Shown here: positions 5,166-59,773 of the stretch, in pieces
How the letters are laid out: every line of letters begins with the position of its first letter
Position numbering within the stretch: position 1 is the stretch's first letter
Origin: Haematococcus lacustris
Lineage: Eukaryota; Chlorophyta; Chlorophyceae; Chlamydomonadales; Haematococcaceae
DNA: 64,000 nt
Assembly: GCA_030144725.1 (NCBI GenBank)
Contig: JASKMD010000012.1
Span: forward strand, 9,216,928 to 9,280,927
Reading direction: 5' to 3'
The notes under the pieces: generated by a model
What the model was told of the DNA's origin: nothing
Database searches by the model: none
The model's input: the letters and a program-made list of their open reading frames with translations, nothing else
Position numbers and translations under genes: made by a program

Positions 5166-5689
5166 TATCTGTGTATAGTTCCATAGTGTATAACGTAATT
5201 GATCGCCGCAGTACTGTACACCACCTCATGGTGCAAAACTGCACCAAGTTTAATCTACTAGTTTTTTGGGGCCAAATGGTGGTGTTATTGATCTATCACT
5301 CATTATTTTTTTGGTGCTGAAATCTTGGTTGCTTTAGATTTCATATAATACTCCTGATGTATACCTGCACCATGTTCTGGAGCAAGACTGCAATGTATCC
5401 CATGGCGCAGTACTGTACCATATTGAGTGGTAAAAAAAGAATCATAGCGCTATATCACCAACCACGAATATTCATGAGTTTTTGTTTAATCCCCAATGTA
5501 AAGATAGCATCTTAGGGCTATGTGCCACATCTCAGGCCAAAAAACATCGCAATTCTGTTTTTAGTTTGCCGGAGTGTGGGCCAATACCTCCGTTGGGCGG
5601 CGTGCACAACGCTGTGCTGCATTGCGATGTTGTGGCGTTGTGCTTGCTATCCGGGCACGGGCTGCTGGTCACCCCCGCCATTGGCCCCA

Positions 5690-6235
5690 CAATTCACTTT
5701 TTGGCACCGTCTTTGATCCGCTGCATGTAATTCTTCCACCATTGGGTTCTACATCTCACAACGGTGTCGCTAGCAGGTTAGGCCCTCTTTTGTCGATTGT
5801 ACTGCATTGTCTCGACGACTTGGTTAGCTTCGCAATGTCATTCTCCATCTGTCTATATGCGTGTCGCAACAGGAGAGGTGGATTGGTGGCCGGAGGCATT
5901 TCCGTGCCGAGCAGCCTTTGCTGCCATTGGACTGGGCAACTCGCGAATACATCTGAGGTAAGCACGGGGTGCTGTTTCTTAGTGCGTTTTGCATACAATG
6001 TCAACACATGCAACCAAATCTGCTGACCTCCACAGGTGCTTGGCAGTTGTGAGGATCAGCATCAAACCTACAGCAGCCCAAGGGTCTCCCAAGCAGCAGT
6101 GCAGCAAGGGAATCAGCTCTTGAAAACAGTGAGCAAGAGGTGAGTAAGGTTGTAATTTACCTCACCTTGTCTAGGTCAGTTTGATGTTCACACTTGCGCA
6201 ACGCATGACAGGCATGAACAGCTGAGGGTAACACA
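5690..6235 (+). repeat. Dispersed repeat R1, uninterrupted copy (empty site)
   Basis: The sequence from about 5690 to 6080 matches the reverse complement of 47961-48350. The part from about 6081 to 6235 matches the reverse complement of 40210-40394. The junction CCC-AA-GGG at 6078-6085 is unbroken here. At 40.4-48.0 kb the same repeat is split at this point by a 7.6 kb element. R1's other half (9835-10150) is absent here, so this copy is itself truncated near 6235. Confidence 0.85.
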
Positions 6236-8710: not shown

Positions 8711-11700
8711 CGCAGGTACGCTACGATCATCGGTGCCCGCCGGCTTTCGTCCCGCATCCTCTTGGCCGTGGCGCTTTCGCTGTCACTTCATTTGCTGGAC
8801 TGCGCCGTGACCGCCTCCCCGGCCGGTCAGCTGCAGGCCTGCTTCAACCGCAATGCCTCGACCCAAGCGCCGTACTTTGTCGAGGACTATGTCACCGAGC
8901 GTCCGTCCAGGTAGACTATGCCAACAGTTCTGGTGTGGCTACGATGACAGCATGCTGATTGTGGTTGTGGTCGTCGCCCTGACGCTCCCACATGCTCAGT
9001 CTATGCTGCAGTCACCGGGTGGGCCTGTTTGCAGGCTGACCATCCACTCGGTGCTGTGGTCCACCAAGCTGAAACCCGCGCAGCAGGCAACAGGCAACAG
9101 CAGAGACTATGCAGGAGTGCCAGCCTACCCTTTGACCATTGCCACCATGACCACCCAGCATCGGCTTAGCAGCTTGGAAGCCCAGTGCAACTCCTGGCCA
9201 GGGCCCCTCACAGCAGTTGTGTATGTACCTCTGCTGCTGGGCAATAAGACCGGCAACGCAGCCAGCCTTCAGGAGGTGCAGGCACTGACACAGAAGCTGT
9301 TTGACCGGTGAGTGTCCCTGTCCCATCAGTGAGGTCCGATTGCATCCATCAGTTCAGTGTGCTCCCATGGTGCTTGCATGAGCTGCAGGGTGGAGGCCAA
9401 CCCTACCTCATGTGCCATGCGTCTGCTGCTGGTGACGGAGCTGCTTGGGGAACAGAGTGCACTGCTACTCTTCCCCATCAACAGCCTCCGCAATGTGGCC
9501 TTGCTGGCTGCTGACACACCCCTGGTGGCCATGATTGACGTGGATATGATGCTGAGTAGCACCCTATCTGACGAGTTCGGTGGCTTAGCCGGCAGGCGAT
9601 GACCTGGAAGCAGGTGGGGAGTGCGTATGGCTCGGCATGACTACATAACCACCTCACCGGTGGCAAGCATATACTGGCACAGGTGATGTGATGGGCAAGG
9701 TGCTGCTGCCATACTCTGTCCCTCCCTCACTCCATCACCTCCTCCACACAGTTCACCCGGGCCACCCCTAAGTGGCATGCTTACTGACTGGAAGTGTCCT
9801 CTCTCGTGTGTGTGCAGCGCGGCAGAGGTGATGCGGCACTCGTGCAAATTAAGGGCTGGCTGGCTTGAAAAACTTGAGAGTTCAGGTCTGAAACTTGGCA
9901 TGTAGGTTGTTGAGACCTAGGGGAGGTCAAGACTCTCTTGGGCCAAAGTGTAATTCTCACTCGGTGTCGAGTTGTTGGACCAGGTGTGGGGCTGTGACCC
10001 TGATTTTGGCTAAGGGAGTTGGCACCGAGTGATCAAAGTGTCTTTTCATGAAATGTGAGTATGAGAGGTTGTAGAGGGTGGTTACAGCTGCCCACCTAGT
10101 AGGTAGCATGCAAAAAGTCCAAGCCAGTGATGAGCTATGGCCCGTGTCCTAGGACCCTGCGCAGGGTCCTAGCGTCACCATGGTCGTAGGACCCTGCGCA
10201 GGGTCCTGGCGACCCTGCGCAGGGTCCTACTGACCCTATGAGTCAAGAGTTTTCCAGGTTTTGTTCTGACCCTGTGTGCCAGGACCTTGTCAGGCTTCCC
10301 GCAGACCCTTTGCTAGGTCCTGTCGTTTCTGTTTAGTATCCTCCCGACTCTGTGTGCCAGGACCCTGCGCAGGGTCCTACGACCATGGTGACGCTAGGAC
10401 CCTGCGCAGGGTCCTGCTGACCCTGTGTGCCAGGACCCTGCGCAGGGTCCTACGACCATGGTGACGCTAGGACCCTGCGCAGGGTCCTACAGACCCTGCG
10501 CAGGGTCCTGGAAACCCTGCGCAGGGTCCTGCTGACCCTGTGTGCCAGGACCCTGCGCAGGGTCCTACGACCATGGTTAGAATTAAAATCTATACTATTA
10601 AAACTGCTAGGGGGGGGGGGTCGGCGGAACGGCCTGCGATTGCGCGCACAGCCTCGCAATAATTATGTAAGGACTCCCTCCGCACAGAATCGCGCAAGAT
10701 GCACTGTGCCGTGAGATCGACTTCCGATCTGCGGTTCTAACGCCCCACAAATAGTAGCTACCAGCGAACCTGGCTCAGCAAACGATGGCGATGCAGCCAG
10801 CGCAGAGATAGTACAAAGTCAGCGGACGGTCAAAAAGTCAAACGGTTCACAGCCAAAAAGTCAAACGAGTCAGGTCCAACGATGGCTGCGGCCACATTTG
10901 GCTGCGGCTGCTGACGAGCTACAGCGTAGCCAGGTCTAATAGCATCCTCATGCGACCCTCCTCCGTGCCGCTCTAACAGGGCATTGCGACAAGTAGGCTG
11001 GATGATTGCAGTTGGCCTTCAAGCCGTGCCATGCCACGCTGTAACGATGGGGCTACATATACGTATACGTAGCGTACCCCGAATACTAAAGGTTTGACCG
11101 TGATAGTGCAAAGGATGCAGGGCGCACAATCCACCGTAACTGCGGTGTGTCCGTAATCGCGAGTCAAATGCGTCAAGTCGCTGCGATATGCAGCCAGCCA
11201 GCCATGACAGTCATCGCACGGGAACCACCTGATGCATACGAGGAATGTGGCGACGAGACCCGGACATGGCAGCAGGGCAGCCGGGCAGCCATCAGGGTAG
11301 GGCAGCAGCAGCGCAGCAGGGCATCAGGGCAGCCGGTCAGGGTAGGGCAGCAGCAGGGCAGCCGGGAAGCCGGTCAGGGTAGGGCAGCAGCAGGGCAACA
11401 AGTCAGGGTAGGGCAGCAGCCGGGCAGGTTAGGGCAGCAGCAGGGCATCAGGGCAGCCGGTAAGGGTAGGGCAGCTGCAGGGCATCAGGGCAGCCGGTCA
11501 GGGTAGGGCAGCAGCAGGGCAGCCGGGCAGCCATCAGGGTAGGGCAGCAGCAGGGCATCAGGGCAGCCGGTCAGGGTAGGGCAGCAGCAGGTCAGCCTGG
11601 CAGCCATCCGGGTAGGGCAGCAGCAGGGCAGCAGGGCAGCCGGTCAGGGTAGGACTGCAGCAGCGCAGCCAGGAAGCCAGTCAGGGTAGGGCAGCAGCAG

Positions 11701-14700
11701 GGCAGCCGGTTAGGGTAGGGCAGCAGCAGGGCAGCTGGTCAGAGTAGGGCAGCAGCAGGGCAGCTGGTCAGAGTAGGGCAGCAGCAGGGCAGCCGGGCAG
11801 AGTAGGGCAGCAGCAGGGCAGCCGGTTAGGGTAGGGCAGCAGCAGGGCAGCTGGTCAGAGTAGGGCAGCAGCAGGGCAGCTGGTCAGAGTAGGGCAGCAG
11901 CAGGGCAGCCGGGCAGAGTAGGGCAGCAGCAGGGCAGCCGGTTAGGGTAGGGCAGCAGCAGGGCAGCTGGTCAGAGTAGGGCAGCAGCAGGGCATCAGGG
12001 CAGCCAGTCAGGGTAGGGCAGCAGCGGGGCAGCCATCAGGGTGGGGCAGCAGCAGGGCATCAAGTCAGCCGCTCAGGGTAGGGCAGCAGCAGGGCAGCCG
12101 ATCAGGGTCGGGCAGCATCAGGGCAGCCGGTCAGGGTAGGGCAGCATCAGGGCAGCCGGTCAGGGTAGCACCAAACTGCACCAACTCACTTTCGCAAAAT
12201 GATGACCTTGCACCTACGGTTCGCCCTACGGACCTATGCATACAGTATATACATACGTATTTACCATCATTTTAGTCGCCGCATACGCTTCAGGCCAACC
12301 CTACAGGTAATGTTGTGTACAGTGAGGTGTTTGCTGCATAGCCTGCTGGCCCTGACACCGATGAGGGGTTGGTAGGGCAGACACAGCCATTGCTGTCACA
12401 GTTGGACTCACTCACTCGGACTCAGCACTCAAACTCACACATCCAGCACTTAGACTCAGCACTCAGCACTGTGGCCTGGTGCAAGAGCTGGTGCAAGGAC
12501 TGGTGCAAGAGCATTGTGGCCGGAGGCCGCAGCTTGGTCCGTGTGCCCCGTCCGCTGTCGGACGGGCCCGCTGTACTAGTCAAATATTAGAACAACTATT
12601 TTGTAGTTTATTTTTAATATTACATGTATTTAATATTTAAAAGGCGCTAGGACCCTGCGCAGGGTCCTGCCGACCCTGTGCAGGGTCCTGGTGACCCTGT
12701 GCAGGGTCCTGGCGCTCTGGCCTTCTGCAGGGTCCTACTGACCCTTTGTAGGGTCCTACTGACCCTGTGAAGGGTCTTGCTGACTGGCACAGGTCGGTGG
12801 CATCTGGATGAAAGCCATAATGAAAATTTCAAAAAAATCCTCGCAACATGGCATGCAACCTCGCAGCCTTCTTGTCACCTAGCCAACTTGCAACCCTGTG
12901 TGCCAGGACCCTGTGCAGGGTCCTACCGACCCTGTGTGGGGCCATGGCGACCCTGTGAGGCATCTTACGCACCCTGTGTGCTAGGACCTATTATTGTCGT
13001 ACCTGCATGTTGATGGGGAAGTTCCAAGCGTCTGTCGGCTGGACCTCCTGTATCTGTTGGATTGGGTCATCATGTTCTTTAGGATTCTTAGTGCTAATGA
13101 ACATGACTAAGTGCTTCAGACCCTGTGCAGGGTCCTGGTGACCCTGTGCCGGGTCCTAGTGACCCTGCACAGGGTTACAGTGACCCTGCGCAGGGTCCTG
13201 GTGACCCTGCGCAGGGTCCTAGTGCACAGGCCTTTTGCAGGGTCCTGTTGCCCATTTGCAGGGTCCTGGTGACCCTGTGCAGGGTCCTAGTGACCCTGCG
13301 CAGGGTCCTGGTGCACAGGCCTTTTGCAGGGTCCTAGTGACCCTTTGTAGGGTCCTACAGACCCTCTGCAGGGTCCTGCTGACTGGCAGAGGTCGGTGGC
13401 ATCTGGATGAAAGCCATAATGAAAATTTCAAAAAAACCTTCGCAACATGGCATGCAATTTCGCAGCCTTCTTGTCACCCAGCCAACTTGCAACGTCCCTG
13501 CTCTACAACACGCCTAGCACAAACGCGATGTACGTGCTCTACATTGCGACATCTCGTACTGCCGTAAGTCGATGAACAACGCCTAAGGTGCGTCTCTTGC
13601 TAGTAGCGACTTCCAATTGCAATGAGTCAGCTCCACGCATTCAGAGCCTCGTAACTCAGCTCGCAGCCAGGCCCGAAACTATGCTCGCTTCCAGTCACAT
13701 TGCACCTAGCTAGCTAGCTCAGACACGCAACTTAGCCGCAACTTAGCCTAGCCAGCAGTGCAGCCCCAGCCACTTCCCCTACCATGAGGCAGCCAACCCG
13801 GATGCTAGGCGTACAACCATCTACGTCGCTAGCTCAGCCACGCAGTCCAGCTACTTCACCAGCATCGCAGCCATCCACACAACCTCGCAATCTCGATATG
13901 TTACAGCCACGCAGCAACGCAAAAAGCCAACGTAGCAAGCCTAGCCACGCATCGACACACAACGACCGAGCCTCGCCGTCAGCCATGCAAACATCCATGC
14001 GAAGTTGTCAAGGTGAGTGGCTATCCCTCTGCAAGTATGTGGCACCGCTTAACATCTGGCATGCCTTTTGTGCTGCTGCAGGATTAATGGTTTGACCCTT
14101 CCCCTTTGCCACCACCACCTCCCAGGCCGTCGTCGCACCTTGCCCCACTCCCTATCCTACCTTGCAGCCTGGAGCAACCTCCTCCTTCCCTCCCTCCTTC
14201 CCTCCCTCCTTCCCTCCCTCCCTCACGCCCTTTCTCACGCCCTCCCTCACGCCCTCCCCCCCTCTACATGTCTCTACAGGTGGCTACAGGTCCCCTTACC
14301 TTCCTGACCTACCATTCCCCTTCCCTTCCCACTCGCCCTTGACCTCACCCTCACCCTCACCCTCACCTTGGCAGGTGAGTAAGCATGCATGTTGTGGTTC
14401 GTATTGCCTTGCATTTGGGAGCCTATGCTGGGTTGCATCAGAGAAGCCACCAGCAAGGAAACGACAAGGTTTGAGCGCTTGTACACCTCTTCGCAACACA
14501 CAACGAGCTTGGAGCGGTAGCCAGGACTTCCGGTGGGTGCACATGCTCTGGTGGTGTCAGCCTACCCAGCCACCCAGTTCTGGTCATGCATGTCCTTATT
14601 CATCTGCTTGCTGGCTTATGTTTGCTTGCAGTTGTTGACAGCTTGAGTATGACAAGTGTAGCAAGGCTTGGTGATTGCAAGCAAGGTGGTAGCGGTGTGA

Positions 14701-17700
14701 CATGGAGGGGGGCATTGAGCATAGCTGTAAGTGGCCAGTCCCTGCACATGAGTTGTCACCAATGCCAAGCCTAACTGCAAGGATGCCTCTTGCTGCCGCA
14801 GGTCTGATGGTCACACTGCTGCCCCTTGCCCCCTTCCCCCTTCCCCCTTCCCTGCCCAATCCCACCACCACCACATCCGAGTCTGCCACCTACCTCCCCT
14901 CCTCCCCTCCTCCCCTCCTCCCCTCCCCTCTCCTCTCCCCCACCCCATGGCACCCAGCAGCCCTTGGCGTAGCAGCATGGAGTGGGCAGTCTGGAGCGGG
15001 CAGCCTGGAGCGGGCAGCCTAGAGCGGGCAGCCTGGAGCGGGCAGCAAGGAGCCAAGCCTAGCCCAGCCTAGCCTAGCCTAGCCCAGCCTAGCCTAGACC
15101 AGCCTGATTTGGTGCCATGGGGCATAGGCAGCAAGGCAAAGTGCTTAGCAGTCCCGTGATGAGGTGTTAGCCCATAGCAAGTGCATCCAATCCTTGTGGT
15201 TGTGCACATGGCATAGGTTGTGAGTAAGGCATGAGTCGTTGTGTTGTTGTTGTTGTTGTTGCAGTGGTATTGTGTTGTGGTGTTGTGTGGTGTTACCATC
15301 TTGCATCAATGCATGTGCTCAGCATCAGCAATGCAAGCCGTTTGTAGTGGTGTTGCATACGTTGTAAGGTTGTACCATAAGACATGACATGGCAGGTTTG
15401 CGCGTGCAAGGTGAATGTCATGATGGCTTAGATGACATGCACGTGAGCAACAAGAGGGAGAGTGCATGAGGGGTCATGTTGTAGTAGCAAGTACAAGAAT
15501 CATGCCTTGTAGACCCTGTAGACTGGTCAGCAAGACCCTGTAAAATGATCAGCAGGACCCTGTAAAAACTGCCATCAGAACCCTGCACAGGGTCGCCAGG
15601 ACCCTCCGACGGGTCACCAGGACCCTGCGCAGGGTCACCAGAACCCTGCAAATGGTCAGCAGGACCCTGTAAAAACTGCCATCAGAACCCTGCACAGGGT
15701 CGCCAGGACCCTGCGCCGGGTCACCAGGACCCTGCGCAGGGTCACCAGGACCCTGCAAATGGTCAGCAGGACCCTGCAAAAACTGCCATCAGAACCCTGC
15801 ACAGGGTCGGCAGGACCCTGCGCCGGGTTGCAGGACCCTGCAAATGGTCGGCAGGACCCTGCAAATGAGGTCAGTAGGACCCTGCGCAGGGTCGCTAGGA
15901 CCCTGCGCAGGGTCGCTAGGACCCTGCAAATGGTCGTCAGGACCCTGCAAATGGCCGTTGCGCTAGGACCCTGCGCAGGGTCGGCAGGACCCTGCGCAGG
16001 GTTTTTTCGGATTTCAAATGGTTATAACATCGCACGAACTTTGAGTTTTTCAATGACAACAACGGCGTTGAGTCGGCCTTTCCTGGGGCTATCTGCGGTA
16101 TGCCTCCCGGGAGAAATGGTCCTGGTGACTTCCGGCCTTAATCGGCGCGAGTGGGTTGTGCCGTGCCGGGAGCCTGCTCGTCCTGCCTGCCTTCGAGTTC
16201 TGTGAACAAGGAGAACATGATCTGCCCACTCGCACTGCAATGGCTGAGAGGATAGCCAGGGGTGAGTGCGCTCCTGTATTCCTGCCCCAGACTCACCCAA
16301 ACCTGGCTTTCTAGAGGGCTGAGAGGTGCACACCACATGGCAACACCACATGGCTGGTGAACAGCTATAGAATGCATGGCTTTGCTGACCCCTTGCGCCT
16401 TGTGCCCAAGAGGCTGCTGGATCTTTGCACCCTCCCAACCTGACGAGGAGCCCCGGTCGGTGCTATTGGTAGGCCTCACGGCCTTAGGGCCAGGCACCTG
16501 CTAACACCTGGTTTACAAACTAGCACCCATGCAAGCAGCTGAGTGTTACACCCTGCCACACTCGGGCCGTGATGGGCTGCAGCCACACGGGCGATGGGCC
16601 ACAGTCATGTGACTTGTGAAAGCTGAAGCTCAGGGACCATGCATCAGAGCAAGTACTCCGTCGATGTGTAGGCCAATCCCCGCATAGTGCTGCAACATGC
16701 ATCGGCAGCTGCCACCTAAACCTTCACCACCCCATCAACCCCATTAGGACAGAATGCAGTAGCCAGCATGTGGCGATGAGCATCTGCTTACCATTGCCAC
16801 TACATGAGCCTACAAACCATAAACTCAAAGTGAAAGTGTTCAAGGAGACAATGAACTACCTGCTGTCGTCGCTGTGCTGCTCAGCAAGATGGGCGCAGCA
16901 CCTTGTGCCTGCTGCTGCTTTCAGGAGGCAAGTCTCACCTGGTAAAGCTGGCGAGGGAGCAGCGCATGTGTATGTTTATGGCAGGGTGGTCAGGAGGGCA
17001 TGCGGCCACCCAGTATCCAGTCTGGTACAGGTCACCATGGCCATACACAGTGAGTCAACCATGATGCTGCTGTCAGCCCCCTTGTCCCTCACTAGGGCCT
17101 CCATTTGAGCCGTCAGCCCAATGCCATGAAACCATGATGCTCACCTCACTGCCCTTCAGCCAGCTTTGAGGGGTTAGACACCACCGAGTCAGGCAGACCC
17201 GCCACCTATGAGCCAACATGCTGCCTGGTTGGCCAACCTCGTCATTCCTACCATCCCTACCATTGTCATCAACTGCGTGGATGCATGGATGGTTGGCGTA
17301 ACGAAGGTGCTGGCATGGCAGTCATGGACTCTTCCGTGCGCATTTGTTATTTGCAGCAGTGTCGCTGGTCTGGTGGGAGGGTAGCAAGAGCCCCATGCCC
17401 CGAGGCTACTCCCCTCCCTTCATGCACGCCCGACGGCGTGGGCGTAGTCTTTCTTTCTTTCTTTCTTCCTATCTTCCTTTCAGTGCCGCTGGTTGGCTGA
17501 GCGTGTGGGTCCTGTCCATGCCCATGTGCTCCCAGATTCAGCACACGTCCTTGTACGAGCCGTGGTACATCGTAGATCGCATCCGCAACCCCTGGTATGA
17601 CGCGCGGTTCCGGGGCTATGGCATGGATAAGCAACAGCAGGTGCGCATGCAAAGCTATTCCCCCTGCTCACCCATGCATATGGCTAAACCACCACCTCAC

Positions 17701-27064: not shown

Positions 27065-27069
27065 CTGCA

Positions 27070-28070: not shown

Positions 28071-28075
28071 CATGT

Positions 28076-35365: not shown

Positions 35366-35366
35366 A

Positions 35367-37882: not shown

Positions 37883-38994
37883 CTACAGTACTGTAGGTGT
37901 CTACAGTACTGTAGGGGTCTACAGTACTGTAGATGTCTACAGTACTGTAGGTGTCTACAGTACTGTAGGTGTCTACAGTACTGTAGATGTCTACAGTACT
38001 GTAGGTGTCTACAGTACTGTAGGTGTCTACAGTACTGTAGATGTCTACAGTATTGTAGGTGTCTACAGTACTGTAGGGGTCTACAGTACTGTAGGTGTCT
38101 ACAGTACTGTAGGTGTCTACAGTACTGCAGGTGTCTACAGTACTGTAGATGTCTACAGTACTGTAGGGGTCTACAGTACTGTAGGTATCTACAGTACTGT
38201 AGGGGTCTACAGTACTGTAGGGGTCTACAGTACTGTAGGGGTCTACAGTACTGTAGGTGTCTACAGTACTGTAGGGGTCTACAGTACTGTAGATGTCTAC
38301 AGTACTGTAGGTGTCTACAGTACTGTAGGTGTCTACAGTACTGTAGGTGTCTACAGTACTGTAGATGTCTACAGTACTGTAGGTGTCTACAGTACTGTAG
38401 GTGTCTACAGTACTGTAGGTGTCTACAGTACTGTAGGTGTCTACAGTACTGTAGGTGTCTACAGTACTGTAGGTGTCTACAGTACTGTAGATGTCTACAG
38501 TACTGTAGATGTCTACAGTACTGTAGGTGTCTACAGTACTGTAGGGGTCTACAGTACTGTAGGGGTCTACAGTACTGTAGGGGTCTACAGTACTGTAGGG
38601 GTCTACAGTACTGTAGGGGTCTACAGTACTGTAGGTGTCTACAGTACTGTAGGGGTCTACAGTACTGTAGGTGTCTACAGTACTGTAGGGGTCTACAGTA
38701 CTGTAGGGGTCTACAGTACTGTAGGGGTCTACAGTACTGTAGGTGTCTACAGTACTGTAGGTGTCTACAGTACTGTAGGTGTCTACAGTACTGTAGATGT
38801 CTACAGTACTGTAGGGGTCTACAGTACTGTAGGTTTCTACAGTACTGTAGGTGTCTACAGTACTGTAGATGTCTACAGTACTGTAGATGTCTACAGTACT
38901 GTAGGGGTCTACAGTACTGTAGGGGTCTACAGTACTGTAGGGGTCTACAGTACTGTAGGGGTCTACAGTACTGTAGGGGTCTACAGTACTGTAG
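37883..38994. repeat. 62-unit, strictly 18-bp array carrying the palindrome CTACAGTACTGTAG
   Basis: The first core starts at 37883 and the last at 38981. The distance is exactly 61 x 18, so no indels occurred. The 4-bp linker between cores varies by substitution only (GTGT, GGGT, ATGT, GTAT, GTTT). Two cores carry a single change (38051 region ATTG; 38126 region GCAG). The 18-bp period keeps reading frames open (VYSTVG on +, DTYSTV and LQYCRH on minus). Confidence 0.97.
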
Positions 38995-39905
38995 GTGCCT
39001 TCCCCCCATGCATCCTTAACCCCCATGCCCCCTTCGCCCCCATGCAGGAACATCTCAATGTAGCCCAAGCTCGTTTGCTATCCCGACAGTGCTATGCAAA
39101 TGCGCTGACAACAAAGCGTGCCTATGTTGCCCAGCCCAGCCCAGCCCTGCCCAGCCCTACTCAGCCTCTAGGATTCGTTACCGACCCTGAGCCTAGCCCT
39201 TGTGTTAGGAACACAAGTGGTGATGTAATGATGTAGGCTAAGAGTCATGATGTAATGATGTGAGGTTATATGTAATGATGGATGGTTGATGGCCAACCGC
39301 AAACAACTTTTGGGGCAATCTCTGCCGCACTCGATATTACACGGGAGGGTGCGGTGCAGGAGGTTGTTGTGATTGCGGGGCATCATCAACATCCACAGCT
39401 TTGCGGGAGCTTGCAAGCCGAGCTACCCAGTACAACCGACAGAACGGACCTAGCTTGCGATAGAGACGGGCCCCGGCCTTAGACCTTACACGTATGTATG
39501 TAGCTCCCTATGGCGACCTTATTGCGTGGACACAACTTTCGGCACAAATATCTATATCGAGCTTGCGGGCCTACGCTTCGACGCCTCTCACTATTTATAG
39601 CACGCAGAAGCTGACGGTGCAATCGCGGTAGCAAATGGTGGTTTGAATGTGGAGAACAACATGATACCCTATTTACAAGAGACCTTGTCAAATCTGACCT
39701 ACAGTACTGTAGACATCTACAGTACTGTAGACATCTACAGTACTGTAGATGTCTACAGTACTGTAGGTACCTACACTCCAACTGCTCACATACTCAAAAT
39801 TTCAACAAGCGTCAAGTGGCGTTGGAGTCGCAAGGACAATCCGAGGCGAACCGCATCAAAAAACTACCCCCCTAGGATGACGAATATCCGCACTAATTTG
39901 CCTGA
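38995..39905 (+). repeat. Dispersed repeat R2, copy 1 (contains four CTACAGTACTGTAG cores)
   Basis: Matches 48384-49330 along its length and 57484-57927 (inverted) over its last 440 bases. It contains CACTATTTATAGCACGC (TATA-like, 39591) and four 18-bp units at 39700-39768. It ends ...ATCCGCACTAATTTGCCTG. It abuts the 62-unit array on the left and R1 on the right. Confidence 0.9.
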
Positions 39906-40394
39906 GTGGAACTTGTACAGGGTCCTAGGACACGGGCCATAGCTCATCACTGGCTGAGACTTTTTGCATGCCACCTACTAGGTTGGGCAGCTGTAACCAC
40001 CCTTTACAACCTCTCATACTCACACTTCATGAAAAGTCACTTTGGTCACACGGTGCCAACTCCCTTAGCCAAAATCAGGGTCACAGCCCCACACCTGGCC
40101 CAGCAACTCGACACCGAGTGAGAATTACACTTTGGCCCAAGAGAGTCTTGTCATCCCCTGGGTCACAGCAACCCACATACCAAGTTTCAGACCTCAACTC
40201 TCAGGTTTTTCAAGCCAGCCAGGCCTTAATTTGCACGAGTGCTCAGCTGTTCATGCCTGTCATGCGTTGCGGAAGTGTGCGAGTGAACATCAAACTGACC
40301 TAGACAACGTGAGGTATAATACAACCTTACTCACCTCTTGCTCACTGTTTTCAATGGCTCATTGCCTTGCTGCACTGCTGCCTGGGAGACCCTT
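39906..40394 (-). repeat. R1, left flank of the split copy
   Basis: Reverse complement of 9835-10152 followed by 6081-6235. It ends GGGAGACCCTT directly at the terminus of the 7.6 kb element. Confidence 0.88.
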
Positions 40395-40419
40395 CACTCA
40401 CACAAATTAGCAGCGGCTC

Positions 40420-41005
40420 CCGCGCTGTAGCCAATGGTTTCTGCGCGGGAACCGGTGGTTTCTGCGCGGGAGCCGGAGGTTTCTGCGCGGGAGCCGGTGG
40501 TTTCTGCGCGGGAGCTACTGGCTACTGCGCGGGAGCCGATGGCTACCGCGCTGGAGCTAATGACTACCGCGCTGGAACCAATAGCTACCGCGATGGAGTC
40601 AATGACTACCGCGATGGAGCTAATGGCTACCGCGCTGGAGCTAATGACTACCGCGCTGGAGCCATTGGCTACCGCGATGGAGTCAATGACTACCGCGATG
40701 GAGCTAATGGCTACCGCGCTGGAGCCGCTGGCTACCGCGCTGGAGCCAATGACTACCGCGATGGAGCCAACGGCTACCGTGCTGGAGCTAATAGGTACCG
40801 CGCTGTAGCCAATCCCTACCGCGCTGGAGCTAATGACTACCGCGCGGAAGCTAATAACTACCGCGCCGGAGCTAACAACTACCGCGCTGGTGGCAATGGC
40901 TACCGCTCTGGAGGTAATGGCTACCGCGCTGGAGGTTATGGCTACCGTGCTGGAGCTTGTGTCTACTGCGCAGGTGCCTATGGCTACTGCGCTGGAGGTA
41001 ATAGC
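40420..41005 (+). repeat. 21-bp array, CTACCGCGCTGGAGCTAATGA
   Basis: About 27 units of 21 bp. The first five are TTTCTGCGCGGGAGCCGGTGG-like and later ones CTACCGCGCTGGAGCCAATGA-like. The 21-bp period keeps the frame open (GANDYRA). It forms the left terminal array of the foldback element. Confidence 0.92.
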
Positions 41006-41714
41006 GATTGTGTCCTTGCAACGTCATTGTGTTTCTGCACTTGTGTACCATGCCCTACGGCAACGCTGTTTCTCTGTTCCCTTTATTTCTCTATCGTTTG
41101 TTGTGAGGCTTGTTGTGACAACGGTTATTGCTGATGTTGATGGTCAATCTACGGTTGTTTAAGGTTGCTGTGTTGATGCAAGGCCAGGTTGATGCCTCAA
41201 GCCTATGTTTACCCTCGATGAAGTCTGTGTAAACCTTAACTCATGTTGCCTGTGTCTATGGCTCATCTCACTGGCTCATCTTGAGAACTGCAATCATATC
41301 CTGATGATGGGATACTTACTATTACTGTAGGCCTGGCTCTTACACTGTGTGTGGACCTTACACTCGTCATCATGCTCATGTACCAGCATCAGAGACATGA
41401 ACAACGACAACACCATGAGCAACAACGACATCATGACCAGCTGGCCTGGCAGCACCACACCAACATCACCAACATGAAGGCAACTTGAGCAGCAACAACA
41501 GCATGAGGCACACCTGAATTGGCTCTATGTGTATTTTGTTGTGCAAGGCGTGATGATGTGCAACGCTATTGGTCTGCTGGCGCCCTTCACAACCCCCTAC
41601 TTTGGTGCCTTCTGGCGCTTAGCCTGTGGAGCCTCCCCCCCACCCCCTTCCCCAGCACCCTTCTGCCCGTTGGCCTTGCCTCTGCCCCTACCCCCGCCTC
41701 TGGCTTCACTATGG
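41006..41714 (+). other. Interior of the foldback element, unrecognised; possible short exon
   Basis: After TTACTGTAG (41330) a frame reads LALTLCVDLTLVIMLMYQHQ followed by a His/Gln-rich stretch to a TGA near 41488. This could be a small exon or a CAACA-repeat artefact. The rest (41006-41330, 41500-41714) shows no known domain. Confidence 0.35.
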
Positions 41715-42715
41715 CTTCACTATGGCTTCAGCGCGGGAGCATAGCGGCTCCCGCGTTGTAGCACTATGGCTTCAGCGCGGGAGCATAGCGTCTCCCGCGC
41801 TGTAGCATAATGGCTTCAGCGCGGGAGCATATGGGCTCCCGCGCTGTAGCACTATGGCTTCAGCGCGGGAGCATAGCGGCTCCCGCGCTGAAGCATAATG
41901 GCTTCAGCGCGGGAGCATATGGGCTCCCGCGCTGTAGCACAATGGCTTCAGCGCGGGAGCATAGCGGCTCCCGCGTTGTAGCACTATGGCTTCAGCGCGG
42001 GAGCATAGCGGCTCCCGCGTTGTAGCACTATGGCTTCAGCGCGGGAGCATAGCGGCTCCCGCGCTGTAGCATAATGACTTCAGCGCGGGAGCATATGGGC
42101 TCCCGCGCTGTAGCATAATGACTTCAGCGCGGGAGCATAGCGGCTCCCGCGCTGTAGCACAATGGCTTCAGCGCGGGAGCATAGCGGCTCCCGCGCTGTA
42201 GCACTATGGCTTCAGTGCGGGAGCATAGCGGCTCCCGCGCTGTAGCACTATGGCTTCAGCGCGGGAGCATATGGGCTCCCGCGCTGTAGCACAATGACTT
42301 CAGCGCGGGAGCATAGCGGCTCCCGCGCTGTAGCACAATGGCTTCAGCGCGGGAGCATAGCGGCTCCCGCGCTGTAGCACTATGGCTTCAGCGCGGGAGC
42401 ATAGCGGCTCCCGCGCTGTAGCATAATGACTTAAGTGCGGGAGCATAGCGGCTCCCGCGCTGTAGCATAATGACTTCAGCGCGGGAGCATATGGGCTCCC
42501 GCGCTGTAGCACAATGGCTTCAGCGCGGGAGCATAGCGGCTCCCGCGCTGTAGCACTATGGCTTCAGCGCGGGAGCATAGCGGCTCCCGCGCTGTAGCAC
42601 TATGGCTTCAGCGCGGGAGCATAGCGGCTCCCGCGCTGTAGCACTATGGCTTCAGCGCGGGAGCATAGCGGCTCCTGCGCTGCATAGGGCTCCTTCTCTG
42701 CAGCCATAGGGCTCC
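41715..42715 (+). repeat. 44-bp hairpin array (left arm)
   Basis: About 22 units of the form TTCAGCGCGGGAGC-AT(A)(T)GCGGCTCCCGCGCTG-TAGCAYWATGGC. Each unit holds a perfect 12-bp inverted repeat with a 4-6 base loop. The orientation set by the linkers is opposite to that of the array at 46620-47690. Confidence 0.95.
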
Positions 42716-44180
42716 TGCCCTGCAGCCATGGGGGCCGGCAGCAGCAGGGGGGCAGCATCACCTATGTCAGTAGGGGCAGCGGCGGCGTGGTGTGGGGAGG
42801 GGTAACTGGGGTGGAGTGCACATTCACCTAGCAATGTGACTACGCCATGGACACGTTTCATCTTCCAATGAAAGCAGGCAAGAGCTTGGTTTGGATCAGC
42901 GAGCACATTAGCAGCAATAGTAGCAAGCAGCAGGAGCACGCTACTGAGTGGTGCCGGCAGCAGAGTGGACAGACATACTGCCCGCATGCTGCTCATTACT
43001 TGCCTCTCGCCTTTCTTGCTGCCTGGCCGCCGCTGCTGCTGCTCCTTGCCACCGCTTCTGTGAGGTGTGGGAGGAGGCTGGTGGGAGGGAGGGAGGAGGC
43101 TGGCTGGGAGGAGGCTGGTGGGAGGGAGCAGTGGTTGGGTGAGGTGGTGGCTGCCATGCCGCATGAATGGAACTGAAAGGGAGGGGGGAGGGAGGGGATA
43201 GGGGAAGGGGATATGGGGATATGGGGATTTGGGGAGTGGCTGCCTCTGGACTGCTCGTACAGTGCGCAAAGGAGAGCATACGGGGGCATAGGGGCGGGGC
43301 GGGAGGAGATGTGTTGATGAATTGTACATGGGCTGGGGGAGGGGGAAGTGTATCAACAAACTGGGAGAGGGTGGTTCTGTAGGGGGTGGGGGAGAAGAGG
43401 TGACCATCAGACCTGCAGCCAAGGGGCGTGCACGTGTAGTAGGGAGATCGGCTGGGCACTAGGTGTTAGCCACTTACCGGTAGCCACCAGCAGCCCCTCA
43501 CTGGCAGAGAGCAGGGAGTGAAATGGTCAGGAAGAAGAGGGGGAAGGGGGAGCTTGTGTGTGTGGAGGTGGGAAGGTGATGGTAGTGATGCCAAGGTGCC
43601 AAGTTAGGTAGGAGTAGGTCTGCTCTTGGCTGCTGGGAAGGGTAGGTAGGGAAGGGCAGGTGGCTGCGATGCCAAGGGGATAGAAGGCGAGGGGGAGGGG
43701 GGAAGTAGGAAAGGAGGGTAGAGTAGGAGGTGAGGTACTGAGAGTTACCATCGGACCTGCAGCAAACATAATGCGCGCTAGTGGTTAGGCTGGATAATAG
43801 TGAACACTGTAAGGCAAGGGCAAATTACTCACCGCTTACGCCTTGGTGCTCCGTGTTGCGCAATGCGCCTTGCTGGCTCCTTGTAAGCTGTCACCGTGGA
43901 CTGACCACTCACCGCAGCAAAGCAGGGGGAGGTAATTGTACAATGTGGAGTCGGAAAGTGCAGTAGGGGCTCGAGGAGGGAAGGCTCGAGGGAAGGGCAT
44001 GGGCTACGATGTCAGGAGTAGGAGGGTGGGATGGGGTGGTGTGTGACCGTCAGACCTGTAGTGAGTACGGGGCATGCTAGTGGTTAGGCATAGTAATGAG
44101 GGACACTGAAAGGCAGGGGGCTAGCCACTCACCGCTAACGTTGTGTTGCTCCGTGTTGCACAATATTGTCTTCTTGTTTG
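42716..44180 (-). repeat. Three or four family M modules, minus orientation
   Basis: Read on the minus strand, donor-like GGTGAGT/GGTAAGT and acceptor-like TTGGCTGCAG-GTCTGATGGTCAC (43390), TTTGCTGCAG-GTCCGATGGTAAC (43755) and ACTACAG-GTCTGACGGTCAC (44050) bound 70-100-base introns. C-rich exon-like blocks coding Pro/Ser/Leu follow each. Confidence 0.7.
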
Positions 44181-45110
44181 CTCTTACCTCGGTCTCACCT
44201 TGCATGGGGAGTGGGGCTAAAATGTAAACTGTAGGCTGCGACTGCGTGGCGTTGCGTGCTTGGGCTGCATGCGAGACAAGCTGCGAGTTACTTTGTAATG
44301 CGTGGCGTGGAAATGTCTGCGAGGTGAAAAAACGGCTGTTGGTGAGATCCGAACTGCTAGCTGCGTCTGAGGCTCGCGTCTTCGAAGTTATCTGCAAGGC
44401 GGACTGTTGGCTGGGTGACCATCGCAGACGCCTTTGCAAACCGCGCAGATTGTTGTATTACACTGGAAGCTTTGCGAACTGCGCACACACAACACTTGCG
44501 CGCAACCCTCGACAACGTCACAAATCGGCAGATCGGCATGCAAGAGAGACATGTGAAATAGTGTACTCTTGCACTGAACACGACGTAGCCAAACAGCGAA
44601 GCAGCTCGTCAACTTCACAGCTGAACCGCAGCCGTAGCTAGCGGCAGCTACAAACTCTGCCTTGAGGATAAGCATAGAAACTCAGCCTCGCAACCTTGCA
44701 GCCGCACTTTGCGGCCCCCACCTAGGTAGCCACGCGGCCACCACGCCAACACTTGCCAACACTTGTAGAGAACACTTGCATACAACATCGCAGCAGCTAG
44801 TTGAAGCAACGCGACGCAGCTAGCCGCTCGTCTATCAGGTTTACTCACAGCCAACTCCGCAGCCAACTCCGCAGCCACACGGCTCAGTACCTCGCAGCCA
44901 CCTCGTAGCCAACTCTGCAGCCAACTCCCCAGCTGCACGGCACAGTACCTCGCAAAGAGTCTCGAATGGAGTCCCACCACACAACCTCGCTGCCAACTCC
45001 GCAGCCACACGACACACTACCTCGCACCGCAACGCTACGCAGCGAGGTAATGTAATGTACTTGTAATGTACCAAGTCTTTGCAAAGGTAAGCATGGAGCA
45101 ATATGGAGGA
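44181..45110. other. Centre of the foldback element
   Basis: This part is not C-rich. It contains CGCAGCCAACTC/CTCGCAGCCA units at 44840-45015 related to the minisatellite at 34925. No domain was recognised in either strand's frames. Confidence 0.45.
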
Positions 45111-45114
45111 GTAC

Positions 45115-46445
45115 GGAGCATAAGCGGTGAGTGGCCAGCCCCCCGCCTTTCGGTGGCTCTCATTACACAACCTCATCATGAGCATGCCCCATGTTTGCTG
45201 CAGGTCTGACGGATACACCTGGAACCTTTCCCTCCCCCTCCTTCTTCAAATCACCACAATCGCCTTCCCTCCCTCCCTCCCTCCCTCCCTCCTGCCCTCC
45301 CTGTACAAGTCTCTACAGGTGGCTACAGGTCCTCTTACCCCCCTATCTATACAACCACCCCCTCCAAGTTCGTCAATACACTTACCCCTCCCCCAGGCCT
45401 ACCCTGTCTCCCTCCCTCCCCTTTCCCTACCCAGTCACCCGGTCACCATCCCCTCCCCCCACTTCCCCCCTCACCTCCACCCTCACATACCAGCCCCCTC
45501 CCTTACCCCAGCAGCCCCATCCCAGCCCCTCTCCTTATTTCAGCAACCAGAAGAGAGCCCACCCCAACCTTGACGTTGTACCCTACCCTGGCTCTTGCAC
45601 CTCCACCTAATAACCCCACTTTACCTTCTGCACCAAAAACGTAAGACCAAGGCAAGTAGCGAGGACACGACAAGGCGCGTATCCCTGTTCACAACATCCC
45701 ATCCTATTAGCCCTTCATGCCAGGTGAGTGCCTCCGTCATGCACTACGTGACAGCTAGCTTCCCAGGATGTTATGCATGCCTCATTGTAAGCACGCTCCA
45801 TGCTTGCTGCAGGTCTATACTCCCGCCTATACATCCGCCCCGTGCCTCCTCCCCCCTTCCCTACCCCGTCCCACCACCTCCACTTCCACCTCTCTCCACC
45901 CCCCACTTCCCCCCTCACCGTCACCTCCCCCCTGGCGTCCCAGCAGCGCCCCTGGCGTCCCAGAAAGCCCACCCTACCTGTGCGCAACAAGTCAAGAGCT
46001 GCCTCCCCTCCCCTCCTGCCTCCCCACCCCTCCAGCCTCTCCTCCCCTCCTGCCTCCCTTCCCAATCCTCATCCGCCTGACCGCACAGTGCAACAACAGG
46101 TGTAGCTGGCATGCCGTGTGTTCGCTGCAGCTTTTACGGTCACACTTGCCTTTTCCCTCCCCCCCACCCCCCTTCTCCTTTCCCATACCCACCTGGTGCT
46201 ACCACCGTGTACTAGCACCTTCAAGTCCATCACCCTCCCCTCACTTCTCCACATCTCTCCTCGCCTCCCCAACTACCCCACCCCACCCCACCCCTCTGCC
46301 TTGGAAGGAATCACCCTCAGCACACCTAGCTGCCACATGCCAATGGATAATGGCAGTGGCATTATCACCACACATGAATTGAGTACAGCCAAAGCCCAAG
46401 TCAAGCCAAAGTCCAACCCCGAACACTATGTTGTCAGTTGAAGAT
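45115..46445 (+). repeat. Three family M modules, plus orientation
   Basis: Introns GGTGAGTGGC (45125)...TTTGCTGCAG (45203), GGTGAGTGCC (45723)...CTTGCTGCAG (45812) and a third ending TTCGCTGCAG (46128), each followed by C/T-rich sequence. The first intron strongly resembles the reverse complement of 44085-44140 (GTGAGTGGCYAGCCCCCYGCCTTTC). The open frames read AAGLTDTPG, AAGLYSRL and AAAFTVTL after each acceptor. Confidence 0.7.
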
Positions 46446-46461
46446 AGACAGTAGTACAAAC

Positions 46462-47960
46462 CACTCACACAAATTAGCAGCGGCTCCCGCGCTGCAGCTA
46501 TTTGCTCCCGCGCTGCAGCTATGTGGCTCCCGCGCTGCAGCAATTCAGCTCCCGCGCTGGAGCTAATCGGCTCCCGCGCTGTAGCTAATCGGCTCCCGCG
46601 CTGTAGCTAATCGGCCATAGTGCTACAGCGCGGGAGCCGCTATGCTCCCGCGCTGAAGCCATAGTGCTACAACGCGGGAGCCGCTATGCTCCCGCGCTGT
46701 TGCCATAGTGCTACAGCGCGGGAACCCATATGCTCCCGCGCTGAAGCCATTATGCTACAGCGCGGGAGCCGCTATGCTCCCGCGCTGAAGCCATAGTGCT
46801 ACAACGCGGGAGCCGCTATGCTCCCGCGCTGAAGCCATAGTGCTACAGCGCGGGAGCCGCTATGCTCCCGCGCTGAAGCCATTGTGCTACAGCGCGGGAG
46901 CCCATATGCTCCCGCGCTGAAGTCATTATGCTACAGCGCGGGAGCCGCTATGCTCCCGCGCTGAAGCCATAGTGCTACAACGCGGGAGCCGCTATGCTCC
47001 CGCGCTGAAGCCATAGTGCTACAGCGCGGGAGCCGCTATGCTCCCGCGCTGAAGCCATTGTGCTACAGCGCGGGAGCCCATATGCTCCCGCGCTGAAGTC
47101 ATTATGCTACAGCGCGGGAGCCGCTATGCTCCCGCGCTGAAGCCATAGTGCTACAACGCGGGAGCCGCTATGCTCCCGCGCTGAAGCCATAGTGCTACAG
47201 CGCGGGAGCCGCTATGCTCCCGCGCTGAAGCCATTGTGCTACAGCGCGGGAGCCCATATGCTCCCGCGCTGAAGTCATTATGCTACAGCGCGGGAGCCGC
47301 TATGCTCCCGCACTGAAGTCATTATGCTACAGCGCGGGAGCCGCTATGCTCCCGCGCTGAAGCCATTGTGCTACAGCGCGGGAGCCGCTATGCTCCCGCG
47401 CTGAAGCCATAGTGCTACAGCGCGGGAGCCGCTATGCTCCCGCGCTGAAGCCATAGTGCTACAACGCGGGAGCCGCTATGCTCCCGCGCTGAAGCCATAG
47501 TGCTACAACGCGGGAGCCGCTATGCTCCCGCGCTGAAGCCATAGTGCTACAACGCGGGAGCCGCTATGCTCCCGCGCTGTTGCCATAGTGCTACAGCGCG
47601 GGAACCCATATGCTCCCGCGCTGAAGCCATTATGCTACAGCGCGGGAGCCGCTATGCTCCCGCGCTGAAGCCATAGTGTTAGGCTGCAGCGCGGGAGCCA
47701 CATGGCTTCAGCGCGGGAGCCGCATGGCTGCAGCGCGGGAGCCGATTAGCTACAGCGCGGGAGCCGCTTGGCTGCAGCGCGTGAGCCGCATGGCTTCAGC
47801 GCGGGAGCCACATGGTTGCAGCGCGGGAGCCGATTAGCTACAGCGCGGGAGCCGATTAGCTACAGCGCGGGAGCTGAATTGCTGCAGCGCGGGAGCCACA
47901 TAGCTGCAGCGCGGGAGCAAATAGCTGCAGCGCGGGAGCCGCTGCTAATTTGTGTGAGTG
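46462..47960 (-). repeat. 1.5-kb foldback arm with its own terminal inverted repeats
   Basis: The first about 150 bases (46462-46615: CACTCACACAAATTAGCAGC then five GCTCCCGCGCTG-x-AGC units with TATTTG, TATGTG, AATTCA and TAATCG linkers) are the inverse, in the same linker order, of 47790-47960. Between them lie about 23 hairpin units of 44-45 bp. Confidence 0.93.
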
Positions 47961-48383
47961 TTGGGTTGGTGTGGGTTTGGTGTTGATCCTCAAAACGGCC
48001 AAGCACCTGTGCAGGTCAGCAGATTTGGTTGCGTGTGTTAGCATCGTATGCAATACGCACTAAGAAACAGCACCCCGTGCTTACCTGGGATGTAATCGCG
48101 AGTTGCAAGTCCGACGGTAGCATAGGCTGCTCGGCACGGAAATGCCTCCGGCCACCAATTCATCTCTCTTGTTGCGACACGCATATAAACAGATGGAGAA
48201 TGACATTGCGAAGCTAATCAAGTCGTTGAGACAATGCAGTACAATCGACAAAAGAGGGCCTAACCTGCTAGCGACACCGTTGTGAGATGTAGAGCCCACC
48301 GGTGGAAGAATTACATGCAGCGGATCAAAGACGGTGCCAAAAAGTGAATTGCGGGGCCAATGGCGGGGATGACCTGTAGGTGG
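47961..48383 (-). repeat. R1, right flank of the split copy
   Basis: Reverse complement of about 5690-6080 with roughly 10% divergence. It starts TTGGGTTGG at the element boundary and joins R2 copy 2 at its right end. Confidence 0.87.
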
Positions 48384-49332
48384 TTACAGTACTGTAGGTG
48401 CCTTTCCCCCATGCATCTGTCACCCCCATGCACCCTTCACCCCCATGCAGGAACAACTCAATGTAGCGCAAGCTCGTTTGCTATCCCGACAGTGCTGTGC
48501 AAATGCGCTGACAACACAGCGTGCCTATGTTGCCAAGCCCAGCCCAGCCCTGCCCAGCCTTATTCAGCCTCTAGGATTCGGTATCGACCCTGAGACCAGC
48601 CCTTCCAAGAGCCAGAGCCCATACCATACATGCAGGGATTGGCAGGAACACAAGTGGCAGTTTGATGTGATGATGTAGGCTAAGAGTCATGATGTAATGA
48701 TGTGAGGTTAGATGTAATGATGGATGGTTGAGGGCCAACCGCAAACAACTTTTGGGGCAATCTCTGCCACACTCGATATTACACGGGAGGGTGCGGTGCA
48801 GGAGGTTGTTGCGATTGCGGGGCATCATCAACATCCACAGCTTTGCGGGAGCTTGCAAGCCGAGCTACCCAGTACAACCGACAGAACGGACCTAGCTTGC
48901 GATAGAGACGGGCCCCGGCCTTAGACCTTACACGTATGTATGTAGCTCCCTATGGCGACCTTATTGCGTGGACACAACCTTCGGCACAAATACCCATATC
49001 GAGCTTGCGGGCCTACGCTTCGACGCCTCTCACTATTTATAGCACGCAGAAGCTGACGGTGCAATCGCGGTAGCAAATGGTGGTTTAAATGTGGAGAACA
49101 GCATGGTACCCTATTTACAAGAGACCTTGTCAAATCTGACCTACAGTACTGTAGATGTCTACAGTACTGTAGACATCTACAGTACTGTAGGTACCTACAC
49201 TCCAACTGCTCGAACACTCAGAATTTCAACACGCGCCAAGTGGCGTTGGAGTCGCAGAGACAATCCGAGGCGAACCGCATCAAAAAACTACCCCCCTAGG
49301 ATGACAAATATCCGCACTAATTTGCCTGAGTG
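48384..49332 (+). repeat. Dispersed repeat R2, copy 2 (three CTACAGTACTGTAG cores)
   Basis: Collinear with 38990-39905; the cores are at 49139-49190. A 60-base insertion at about 48603-48660 relative to copy 1 is visible. It ends ...ATCCGCACTAATTTGCCTGA, then hAT coding sequence begins. Confidence 0.9.
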
Positions 49333-49339
49333 TACTTGC

Positions 49340-49800
49340 ATTCCACTAACGCCACGGCCGCTGAGACAGCCAAGAGTATGCCACCCCATCAGTGGCACAG
49401 GATCCACACCGGCGGAGCCCTTGGGGCACTGGCCATGAAGGTCACCTCGCAAGTGGCATCGGCCACCTCCTACGAGCGTGCTTGGAGCAGCTATGGGTTT
49501 GTCCACAACCCGCGCCGCAACCGTTTGACAGCCAGCAATGCAGAGATGCTCACACAGCTCTACTTCAATTCCCGCCTATTGAAGCGTGCTGGCAAGGGTG
49601 TAGCCAGCATAGCTGAAGAGTGGCAGGCCGAGCAAGGGGAGGGGGAGAGGGAGGAGGAGGGGGAGGAGGAGTTGCTTCAACGACTGCAAGCTGTCAATGA
49701 TGATGCCCTTGACATCGCAGTGGAGGCTGATATGGCAAAGGAAGCTGCCCGTGTGGCAGCCAAGGAGGCTGAGGCTCTGGCCCTTGCTTTGAGCTTGTGA
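49340..49800 (+). pseudogene. hAT-family transposase, C-terminal dimerisation region
   Basis: The open frame ends at TGA 49798. It contains HQWHRIHTGGALGALAMKVT then SATSYERAWSSYGFVHNPRR-NRLTASNAEMLTQLYFNSRL. This matches the hAT C-terminal domain pattern (W..GG..LA..A..V.S...S.SS.ER.WS.YGFVH...RNRL....AE.L....FN.RL), which mediates transposase dimerisation. An acidic tail follows. The upstream catalytic region is missing because R2 ends a few bases before, so this is a fragment. Confidence 0.8.

Positions 49801-59729: not shown

Positions 59730-59773
<44 letters not shown>

What the first reader, a model, noticed from the sequence alone, without database searches (positions are those of the whole stretch)
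40395..47960. A 7.57-kb mirror-structured insertion with TT target duplication and an in-window empty site
Outer ends match for at least 33 bases as inverted repeats. Flanks are the two halves of repeat R1, split at one point, and the intact R1 copy at 6078-6090 shows the unsplit sequence with a single TT. The interior is also mirrored: hairpin array, C-rich modules (minus), centre, C-rich modules (plus), hairpin array. I know of no named superfamily with these ends, this TT duplication and terminal arrays of 12-bp-stem hairpins. It could be a non-autonomous foldback element or a new DNA transposon group. It is the best candidate in this window for an undescribed system.
Basis: partly seen in the sequence, partly recalled or inferred. 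Interest (0 to 1): 0.88.

Follow-up and report, generated by a model that had tools for sequence, protein, structure and literature searches.

The report
Composite foldback transposon with hairpin arrays
A 7.6-kb stretch of what is very likely the genome of the green alga Haematococcus is a jumping-DNA insertion whose mirror-image ends are packed with hairpin repeats; no enzyme gene was recognised in it, so it was likely moved by an enzyme made elsewhere, and other repeats nearby carry the same kind of end.

Summary
Segment 40395-47960 (7,566 bp) has exact 33-bp inverted ends (CACTC...GAGTG) and TT on both sides; a paralogous unfilled site at 5667-6226 (minus strand) reads through with a single TT (513 of 566 columns identical). 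I read the whole as a composite, non-autonomous foldback transposon. No transposase domain was found in the 21 of 33 ORFs tested singly, and the genome search did not complete, so no second copy was examined. Ends and duplication length fit the CACTA/EnSpm (CMC) group best, unproven. More interesting: the motif CACTCNNNCAAATTA occurs seven times in the window (none in 40 simulated windows), ends at least two further repeat families, and 7 of 8 clusters of three or more perfect palindromes lie 133-914 bp inward of such an end; one other end pair (9837/16153) has equal 2-bp flanks (GG). This may be a group of palindrome-array DNA transposons in Haematococcus; the rows listed by my literature searches describe none.

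The parts
40393..40394 (.). target site duplication TT, left
   Evidence: single TT in the paralogous unfilled site
40395..40427 (+). left end CACTCACACAAATTAGCAGCG plus first bead GCTCCCGCGCTG
   Evidence: 33-bp exact inverted match to right end
40415..41002 (+). left subterminal block: 28 units of exactly 21 bp, degenerate bead, consensus GGCTACCGCGCTGGAGCCAAT
   Evidence: variability highest at codon position 2, so no coding signature
41003..41717 (.). spacer without array, GC 0.50
41718..42682 (-). left hairpin array, about 22 units of 44 bp, inverted relative to the right array
42740..46461 (.). central region with dyad symmetry; three intron-like modules per arm pointing outward
   Evidence: inverted score 96 vs largest of 60 shuffles 39; no Pfam match in 21 of 33 element ORFs tested singly
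46462..47960 (.). complete 1,499-bp foldback: inverted ends of 142 bp with one mismatch, 6 plus beads, 24 hairpin units, 11-12 minus beads
46462..46494 (+). internal third copy of the end, flank AC (no matching duplication)
46614..47680 (+). right hairpin array, 24 units of 44 bp with a 176-bp higher-order period
47928..47960 (-). right end
47961..47962 (.). target site duplication TT, right
5667..6226 (-). paralogous unfilled site (repeat R1 without the insertion)
9837..16153 (.). second putative element of the same kind: ends CACTCGTGCAAATTAAGG / CACTCGCGCCGATTAAGG, GACCCTGCGCAGGGTC arrays, GG on both sides
39894..39908 (-). end of family R (CTACAGTACTGTAG arrays); copies of this end at 49332 and 57482

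Best explanation
The segment 40395-47960 is a foldback-type insertion with CACTC...GAGTG ends and a TT target duplication, which likely moved as one composite unit in a cut-and-paste reaction run by a CACTA/EnSpm-like transposase encoded elsewhere. Shown: the precise ends, the TT duplication against an unfilled paralogous site, the inverted hairpin arrays, the mirrored centre, and a complete 1.5-kb foldback of the same family forming the right end. Inferred: the transposase would bind the tandem 21-22-bp beads, which start next to the terminus, and pair the left end of a large decayed foldback with the right end of the neighbouring small foldback, carrying the DNA between them along (macrotransposition). 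Inferred: the alternating 44-bp hairpin units in the middle grew by tandem duplication (176-bp higher-order period) and exchange between the two arrays, not as separate functional parts.
For: Unfilled site with one TT. Third exact end at 46462 with flank AC, so the two ends of the inner foldback have unlike flanks and only the outer pair matches. Beads: same orientation at about 22-bp steps next to both ends of the small foldback, alternating 18/26-bp steps in the middle. Unit variants shared between left and right arrays, read by eye from the unit lists. No Pfam domain in 21 of 33 ORFs of 80 aa or more tested singly. CAC..GTG ends and a 2-bp duplication lie inside the range given for EnSpm and its wider clade, 2-5 bp (PMC12730594, passages); CACTA elements carry closely spaced direct and inverted subterminal repeats (PMC8978399, passage). 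Tandem transposase-binding sites in foldback-like ends are known for Galileo (PMC3688188, abstract). A second end pair in the window, 9837/16153, has GG on both sides.
Against: No transposase was found to tie the ends to CACTA/EnSpm; the CACTA duplication is given as 3 bp, here 2. In the left 21-bp block the core match with up to two mismatches falls on either strand, because these beads are near-palindromes, so one-way orientation is clear only at the small foldback. The GG pair could match by chance (about 1 in 16) and has no known unfilled site. The pair 30888(+)/39908(-), of different families, has unlike flanks (AT/GA). No second copy of this element is known: protein searches with two of its ORFs gave no hit, and exact-pattern scans of viral and prokaryote collections, which would hardly hold an alga, gave none. 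The composite step is equally open to gap repair or template switching at the left end of the small foldback.
Confidence: 0.55

Rival explanations
1. Two-step origin at the site: the 1.5-kb foldback inserted alone at TT in R1; later a break at its left end was repaired by copying 6 kb from a large relative that shares the 33-bp end, and the copy rejoined at the old left end.
For: The TT pair would then be that of the small foldback; the 33-bp shared end could serve for invasion (inference); Galileo shows chimeric copies and exchange between copies (PMC3573991, abstract and section 'Chimeric copies').
Against: Needs a copy tract that starts and stops exactly at two copies of the end; nothing in the window distinguishes it from joint transposition.
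Confidence: 0.3
2. The ends belong to an undescribed superfamily whose transposase is not CACTA/EnSpm-like; the palindromic subterminal arrays are its defining cis part.
For: CACTCNNNCAAATTA or a close form ends three or four unlike repeat families in one window, and 7 of 8 clusters of three or more perfect palindromes lie 133-914 bp inward of such an end.
Against: CAC ends, short duplications and inverted subterminal repeats are also CACTA traits; no transposase seen either way; no chance model was run for the cluster positions, and several of the ends are copies of each other.
Confidence: 0.25
3. A Mutator-type foldback, as most foldbacks seem to be.
For: Foldback shape with internally repetitive ends (PMC4079207, section read).
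Against: Tetris and Tm1, of that type, make 8-10-bp duplications; here the unfilled site leaves exactly 2 bp.
Confidence: 0.03
4. A Helentron/Helitron2-like rolling-circle element inserted between two T's.
For: TT at the site is formally compatible with insertion between T and T without duplication.
Against: Exact 33-bp inverted ends and 142-bp inverted ends of the small unit; no Pfam domain of any kind in the 21 ORFs tested. Helentron traits are recalled, not from a call.
Confidence: 0.04
5. An assembly artefact of repeat arrays.
For: The window holds a 500-N gap at 34425-34924 next to an exact 3,164-bp duplication.
Against: That gap is the only N run and ends 5.5 kb left of the element; both junctions agree with the unfilled site to the base. 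Array unit number may still be wrong.
Confidence: 0.03

Closest known systems
CACTA/EnSpm (CMC) DNA transposons
   Same: 5'-CAC...GTG-3' ends (CACTC), short target duplication, subterminal repeats in direct and inverted orientation
   Different: 2-bp rather than the 3-bp duplication given; no transposase seen; subterminal repeats expanded into hairpin arrays of about 1 kb; end motif CACTC not CACTA
Foldback elements (Tetris; Meloidogyne Tm1; Galileo of the P superfamily; Drosophila FB)
   Same: long internally repetitive inverted ends; Tetris and many Tm1 copies without coding sequence
   Different: Tetris and Tm1 make 8-10-bp duplications, Galileo 7 bp; here 2 bp and CACTC ends; hairpin units alternate in orientation
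Ac/Ds macrotransposons and alternative transposition in maize
   Same: ends of two neighbouring elements used as one unit (listing and abstract starts)
   Different: different superfamily; here only inferred from one locus
KDZ (Kyakuja-Dileera-Zisupton)
   Same: CA..TG ends for Kyakuja; a KDZ transposase ORF lies at 62357-63253 in this window
   Different: 7-bp (Kyakuja) and 8-bp (Zisupton) duplications; no link between that ORF and these ends was found

Membership tests
TIR DNA transposon (class II, subclass 1) | inverted terminal repeats bounded by a target site duplication absent from the unfilled site | tested here: met
   33-bp inverted ends, TT/TT, unfilled site with one TT
Foldback elements | long inverted ends made of tandem subrepeats | tested here: met
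   22-bp beads and 44-bp hairpin arrays; 142-bp inverted ends with one mismatch in the 1.5-kb unit
CACTA/EnSpm (CMC) | 5'-CAC...GTG-3' termini | tested here: met
   CACTC...GAGTG
CACTA/EnSpm (CMC) | CACTA pentamer at the very end (the trait that gave the name; not kept by all relatives) | tested here: not met
   CACTC at all three copies of this element's end
CACTA/EnSpm (CMC) | short duplication (3 bp for CACTA; 2-5 bp across the wider clade) | tested here: inconclusive
   2 bp at one proven site, GG at one unproven pair
CACTA/EnSpm (CMC) | related DDE transposase in autonomous copies | tested here: inconclusive
   none among 21 of 33 ORFs tested singly; no genome-wide search possible
Mutator foldbacks (MULE) | 8-10-bp duplication | tested here: not met
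   2 bp
KDZ | 7-8-bp duplication | tested here: not met
   2 bp (definition)
Helitron/Helentron | no duplication and no full inverted ends (recalled) | tested here: not met
   exact inverted ends to the last base

The most novel reading that the evidence does not exclude
Haematococcus carries an undescribed group of DNA transposons, defined by the end motif CACTCNNNCAAATTA, a 2-bp duplication and a family-specific array of palindromes set at the end or 133-312 bp inside it, in which the palindrome array is the docking platform of a shared transposase; two neighbouring members can jump as one composite.
Probability: 0.3. Interest if true: 0.7.

Novelty: new variant of a known kind. Interest (0 to 1): 0.5.

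Why it matters
[quoted passage not shown] A foldback with CACTC ends, a proven 2-bp duplication and hairpin arrays of about 1 kb would show the foldback form arising in a CACTA-like or new lineage. The shared end motif gives a simple query that would let anyone with the Haematococcus assembly (TE content 50.8%, PMC10400597, passages) pull out whole families and look for the autonomous copy. The internal end makes joint transposition of neighbouring elements testable.

Tried and rejected
Coding function of the left 21-bp block: the ORF 40313-41134 is open, but variability is highest at codon position 2 (0.78 against 0.48 at position 1 and 0.61 at position 3, in bits), so not supported. Known RNA family in 40300-48100: none at gathering score. 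Six-frame Pfam scans with stops read as X over the whole element and over 9837-16153 gave nothing, but the same method on the minus strand of 57482-63999 also missed the KDZ ORF that scores 2.4e-07 when given alone; I therefore count those scans as uninformative and rely on single ORFs (21 of the 33 ORFs of 80 aa or more; 12 not tested). Protein relatives of two element ORFs: none among 7204 candidates at E 0.01 and none among 97 at E 0.1. An inner right end of the left foldback near 42.7 kb or 46.4 kb: none at up to 6 mismatches in 20 (the printed list at 7 mismatches was cut at 25 rows). A right partner for end 57482: an exact CACTCACAC ending at 59738 beside a TG microsatellite was seen and dropped as too weak. 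Of the 15 matches to the end motif with up to 2 mismatches (2.76 expected) I left four (8788, 17347, 28649, 33152) out of the palindrome test without further study; by the coordinates none of them has a cluster of three or more palindromes within 1 kb inward. Site 5576 was kept but has no such cluster. No chance model was run for the positions of the palindrome clusters. Rival families judged by duplication length are in the membership table.
Full report
What is there. The segment 40395-47960 starts CACTCACACAAATTAGCAGCGGCTCCCGCGCTG and ends with the exact inverse of these 33 bases. TT stands on both sides. The repeat that it splits has a second copy at 5667-6226 on the minus strand; the two flanks joined with one TT align with that copy over their whole length (566 columns, 513 identical, 12 gap columns; none at the junction). 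The insertion and its 2-bp duplication are therefore shown, not inferred. No N lies in it; the only N run of the window is 34425-34924.

Anatomy. From the left: end; 28 head-to-tail units of exactly 21 bp (40415-41002); a 715-bp spacer; a hairpin array of about 22 units of 44 bp (41718-42682); a centre of 3.7 kb; then a third exact copy of the end at 46462, six beads of 22 bp, 24 hairpin units of 44 bp (46614-47680), eleven to twelve beads of 22 bp in the other orientation, and the right end. The last 1,499 bp is thus a complete small foldback: its two ends match over 142 bp with one mismatch, and as a single strand its ends are predicted to pair in one long stem with a branched, hairpin-rich interior (no shuffle control at that length). 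In the small foldback the bead core GCTCCCGCGCTG keeps one orientation in 21-22-bp steps near each end and alternates in 18/26-bp steps in the middle, which makes the 12-bp-stem hairpins. A 300-nt piece of the left array folds 13.9 standard deviations better than 200 shuffles. Left and right arrays share unit variants (read by eye) and are 95% inverted copies over 965 nt; the right one has a 176-bp higher-order period.

The centre. It is an imperfect mirror: inverted local score 96, direct 26, and at most 39 in 60 shuffles. Three modules on each side point outward. Five of the six have a 5'-splice-like GGTGAGT (four) or GGTAAGT (one), and five of six have GCTGCAG at the other side (the remaining one ACTACAG); by my count on the alignment the intron-like stretch is about 65-90 nt. 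The sixth module (pC) lacks the 5' part. What they derive from is unknown. No Pfam family matched in 21 of the 33 ORFs of 80 aa or more that I tested one by one.

Why composite. Only the outer pair of ends has equal flanks (TT/TT). The inner left end is flanked by AC. So the small foldback did not simply insert into a larger element that was already here; either the whole 7.57 kb came as one unit, using the left end of a larger, decayed foldback and the right end of the small one, or the small foldback inserted at TT and 6 kb was later copied in at its left end during repair. I favour the first (alternative transposition of neighbouring ends is known from maize Ac/Ds; listing and abstract starts), but one locus cannot decide.

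The neighbours. The motif CACTCNNNCAAATTA occurs exactly seven times (9837, 40395, 46462 on plus; 39908, 40241, 47960, 49332 on minus; 40 simulated windows had none) and 15 times with up to two mismatches (2.76 expected). Three of the seven are this element's own. Beyond it the motif marks the ends of a family R (39908, 49332, 57482; 136 and 139 of 145 end-proximal bases equal) and of C-type repeats (9837 and 40241, which are copies of each other; and, with two mismatches each, 16153 and 30888, whose alignment starts at the first base of CACTC in both, score 65 against at most 28 for 490 random stretches and 30 for 300 shuffles). Of 22 clusters of perfect palindromes of 12 bp or longer, eight hold three or more; seven of these lie inward of one of 11 end sites, at 133, 133, 133, 151, 312, 522 and 914 bp; the eighth (13182-13307) lies deep inside the putative element 9837-16153. 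The R copies are related, and some clusters share an end, so these are not seven independent observations, and no chance model was run. The arrays of the element itself have a 6-nt loop and are not in that table. The pair 9837/16153 has GG on both sides and ends equal at 17 of 25 bases; no unfilled site is known for it. The pair 30888/39908, of different families, has unlike flanks (AT/GA); I identified no partner for the other ends in the window.

Host. A reverse-transcriptase ORF at 28010-29302 has 53 relatives at E 0.001 or better, 52 of them named Haematococcus lacustris (the best 83% identical over 82% of the query), the other unnamed, so the window very likely comes from this alga or a near relative. 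The published assembly reports 50.8% transposable elements and used Tandem Repeats Finder, LTR tools and Repbase (PMC10400597, passages); the words CACTA and TIR do not occur in its main text (foldback was not looked up).

Classification. Ends of the form CAC...GTG and a 2-bp duplication fall inside the range given for EnSpm and its wider clade (PMC12730594, passages), and inverted and direct subterminal repeats are a CACTA trait (PMC8978399, passage). KDZ (7-8 bp) and Mutator foldbacks (8-10 bp for Tetris and Tm1) do not fit the duplication length. The CACTA pentamer itself is not met (CACTC). Without a transposase the element works like a CACTA-type foldback, but membership is not shown. How the arrays act is inferred from Galileo, where repeated sites in long ends bind the transposase (PMC3688188, abstract).

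Literature. Searches for foldback with green alga, Haematococcus with transposable elements, CACTA or EnSpm with Chlamydomonas, foldback composites and CACTC ends showed no paper on such elements in Haematococcus among the rows listed (9 to 15 per search, in most a part of the papers found); the library holds open-licence papers only.

Limits. No second copy of the element was examined, because the genome search did not answer on any of 17 tries and the DNA collections that I could scan are viral and prokaryotic. The claim of a wider group rests on one window.

Noticed in passing
9837-16153: Putative second element of the same kind: CACTC ends, GACCCTGCGCAGGGTC palindrome arrays near both ends, GG on both sides.
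   Followed up: partly
37883-39908, 48375-49332, 57482-57930: Repeat family R with CTACAGTACTGTAG palindrome arrays 133 bp inside an end CACTCAGGCAAATTAG; left ends not found. R at 39908 seems to sit inside a C-type array.
   Followed up: partly
26758-29921 and 31261-34424: Exact 3,164-bp duplication whose second copy stops at a 500-N gap (34425-34924); looks like an assembly duplication. Each copy holds a 431-aa ORF; the first was tested and is a reverse-transcriptase relative.
   Followed up: no
62357-63253 (-): ORF matching the KDZ (Kyakuja-Dileera-Zisupton) transposase family, E 2.4e-07. No link to the CACTC ends found.
   Followed up: partly
49333-49800 (+): hAT C-terminal dimerisation fragment, E 1.2e-04, in the stretch right beside the end of R copy 2.
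   Followed up: no
40242 against 6226/9836: The split repeat follows a C-type end directly at 40241, but 3.6 kb lie between the two at 6227-9836; an adjacent deletion starting exactly at a transposon end would explain it.
   Followed up: no
43340-46200: Six intron-like modules (GTGAGT...CTGCAG in most, about 65-90 nt) in a mirrored arrangement; origin unknown.
   Followed up: partly
35365-36046 and 53327-53899: Two pentamer arrays of the same cyclic unit (CAGCC / CCCAG), 682 and 573 bp.
   Followed up: no
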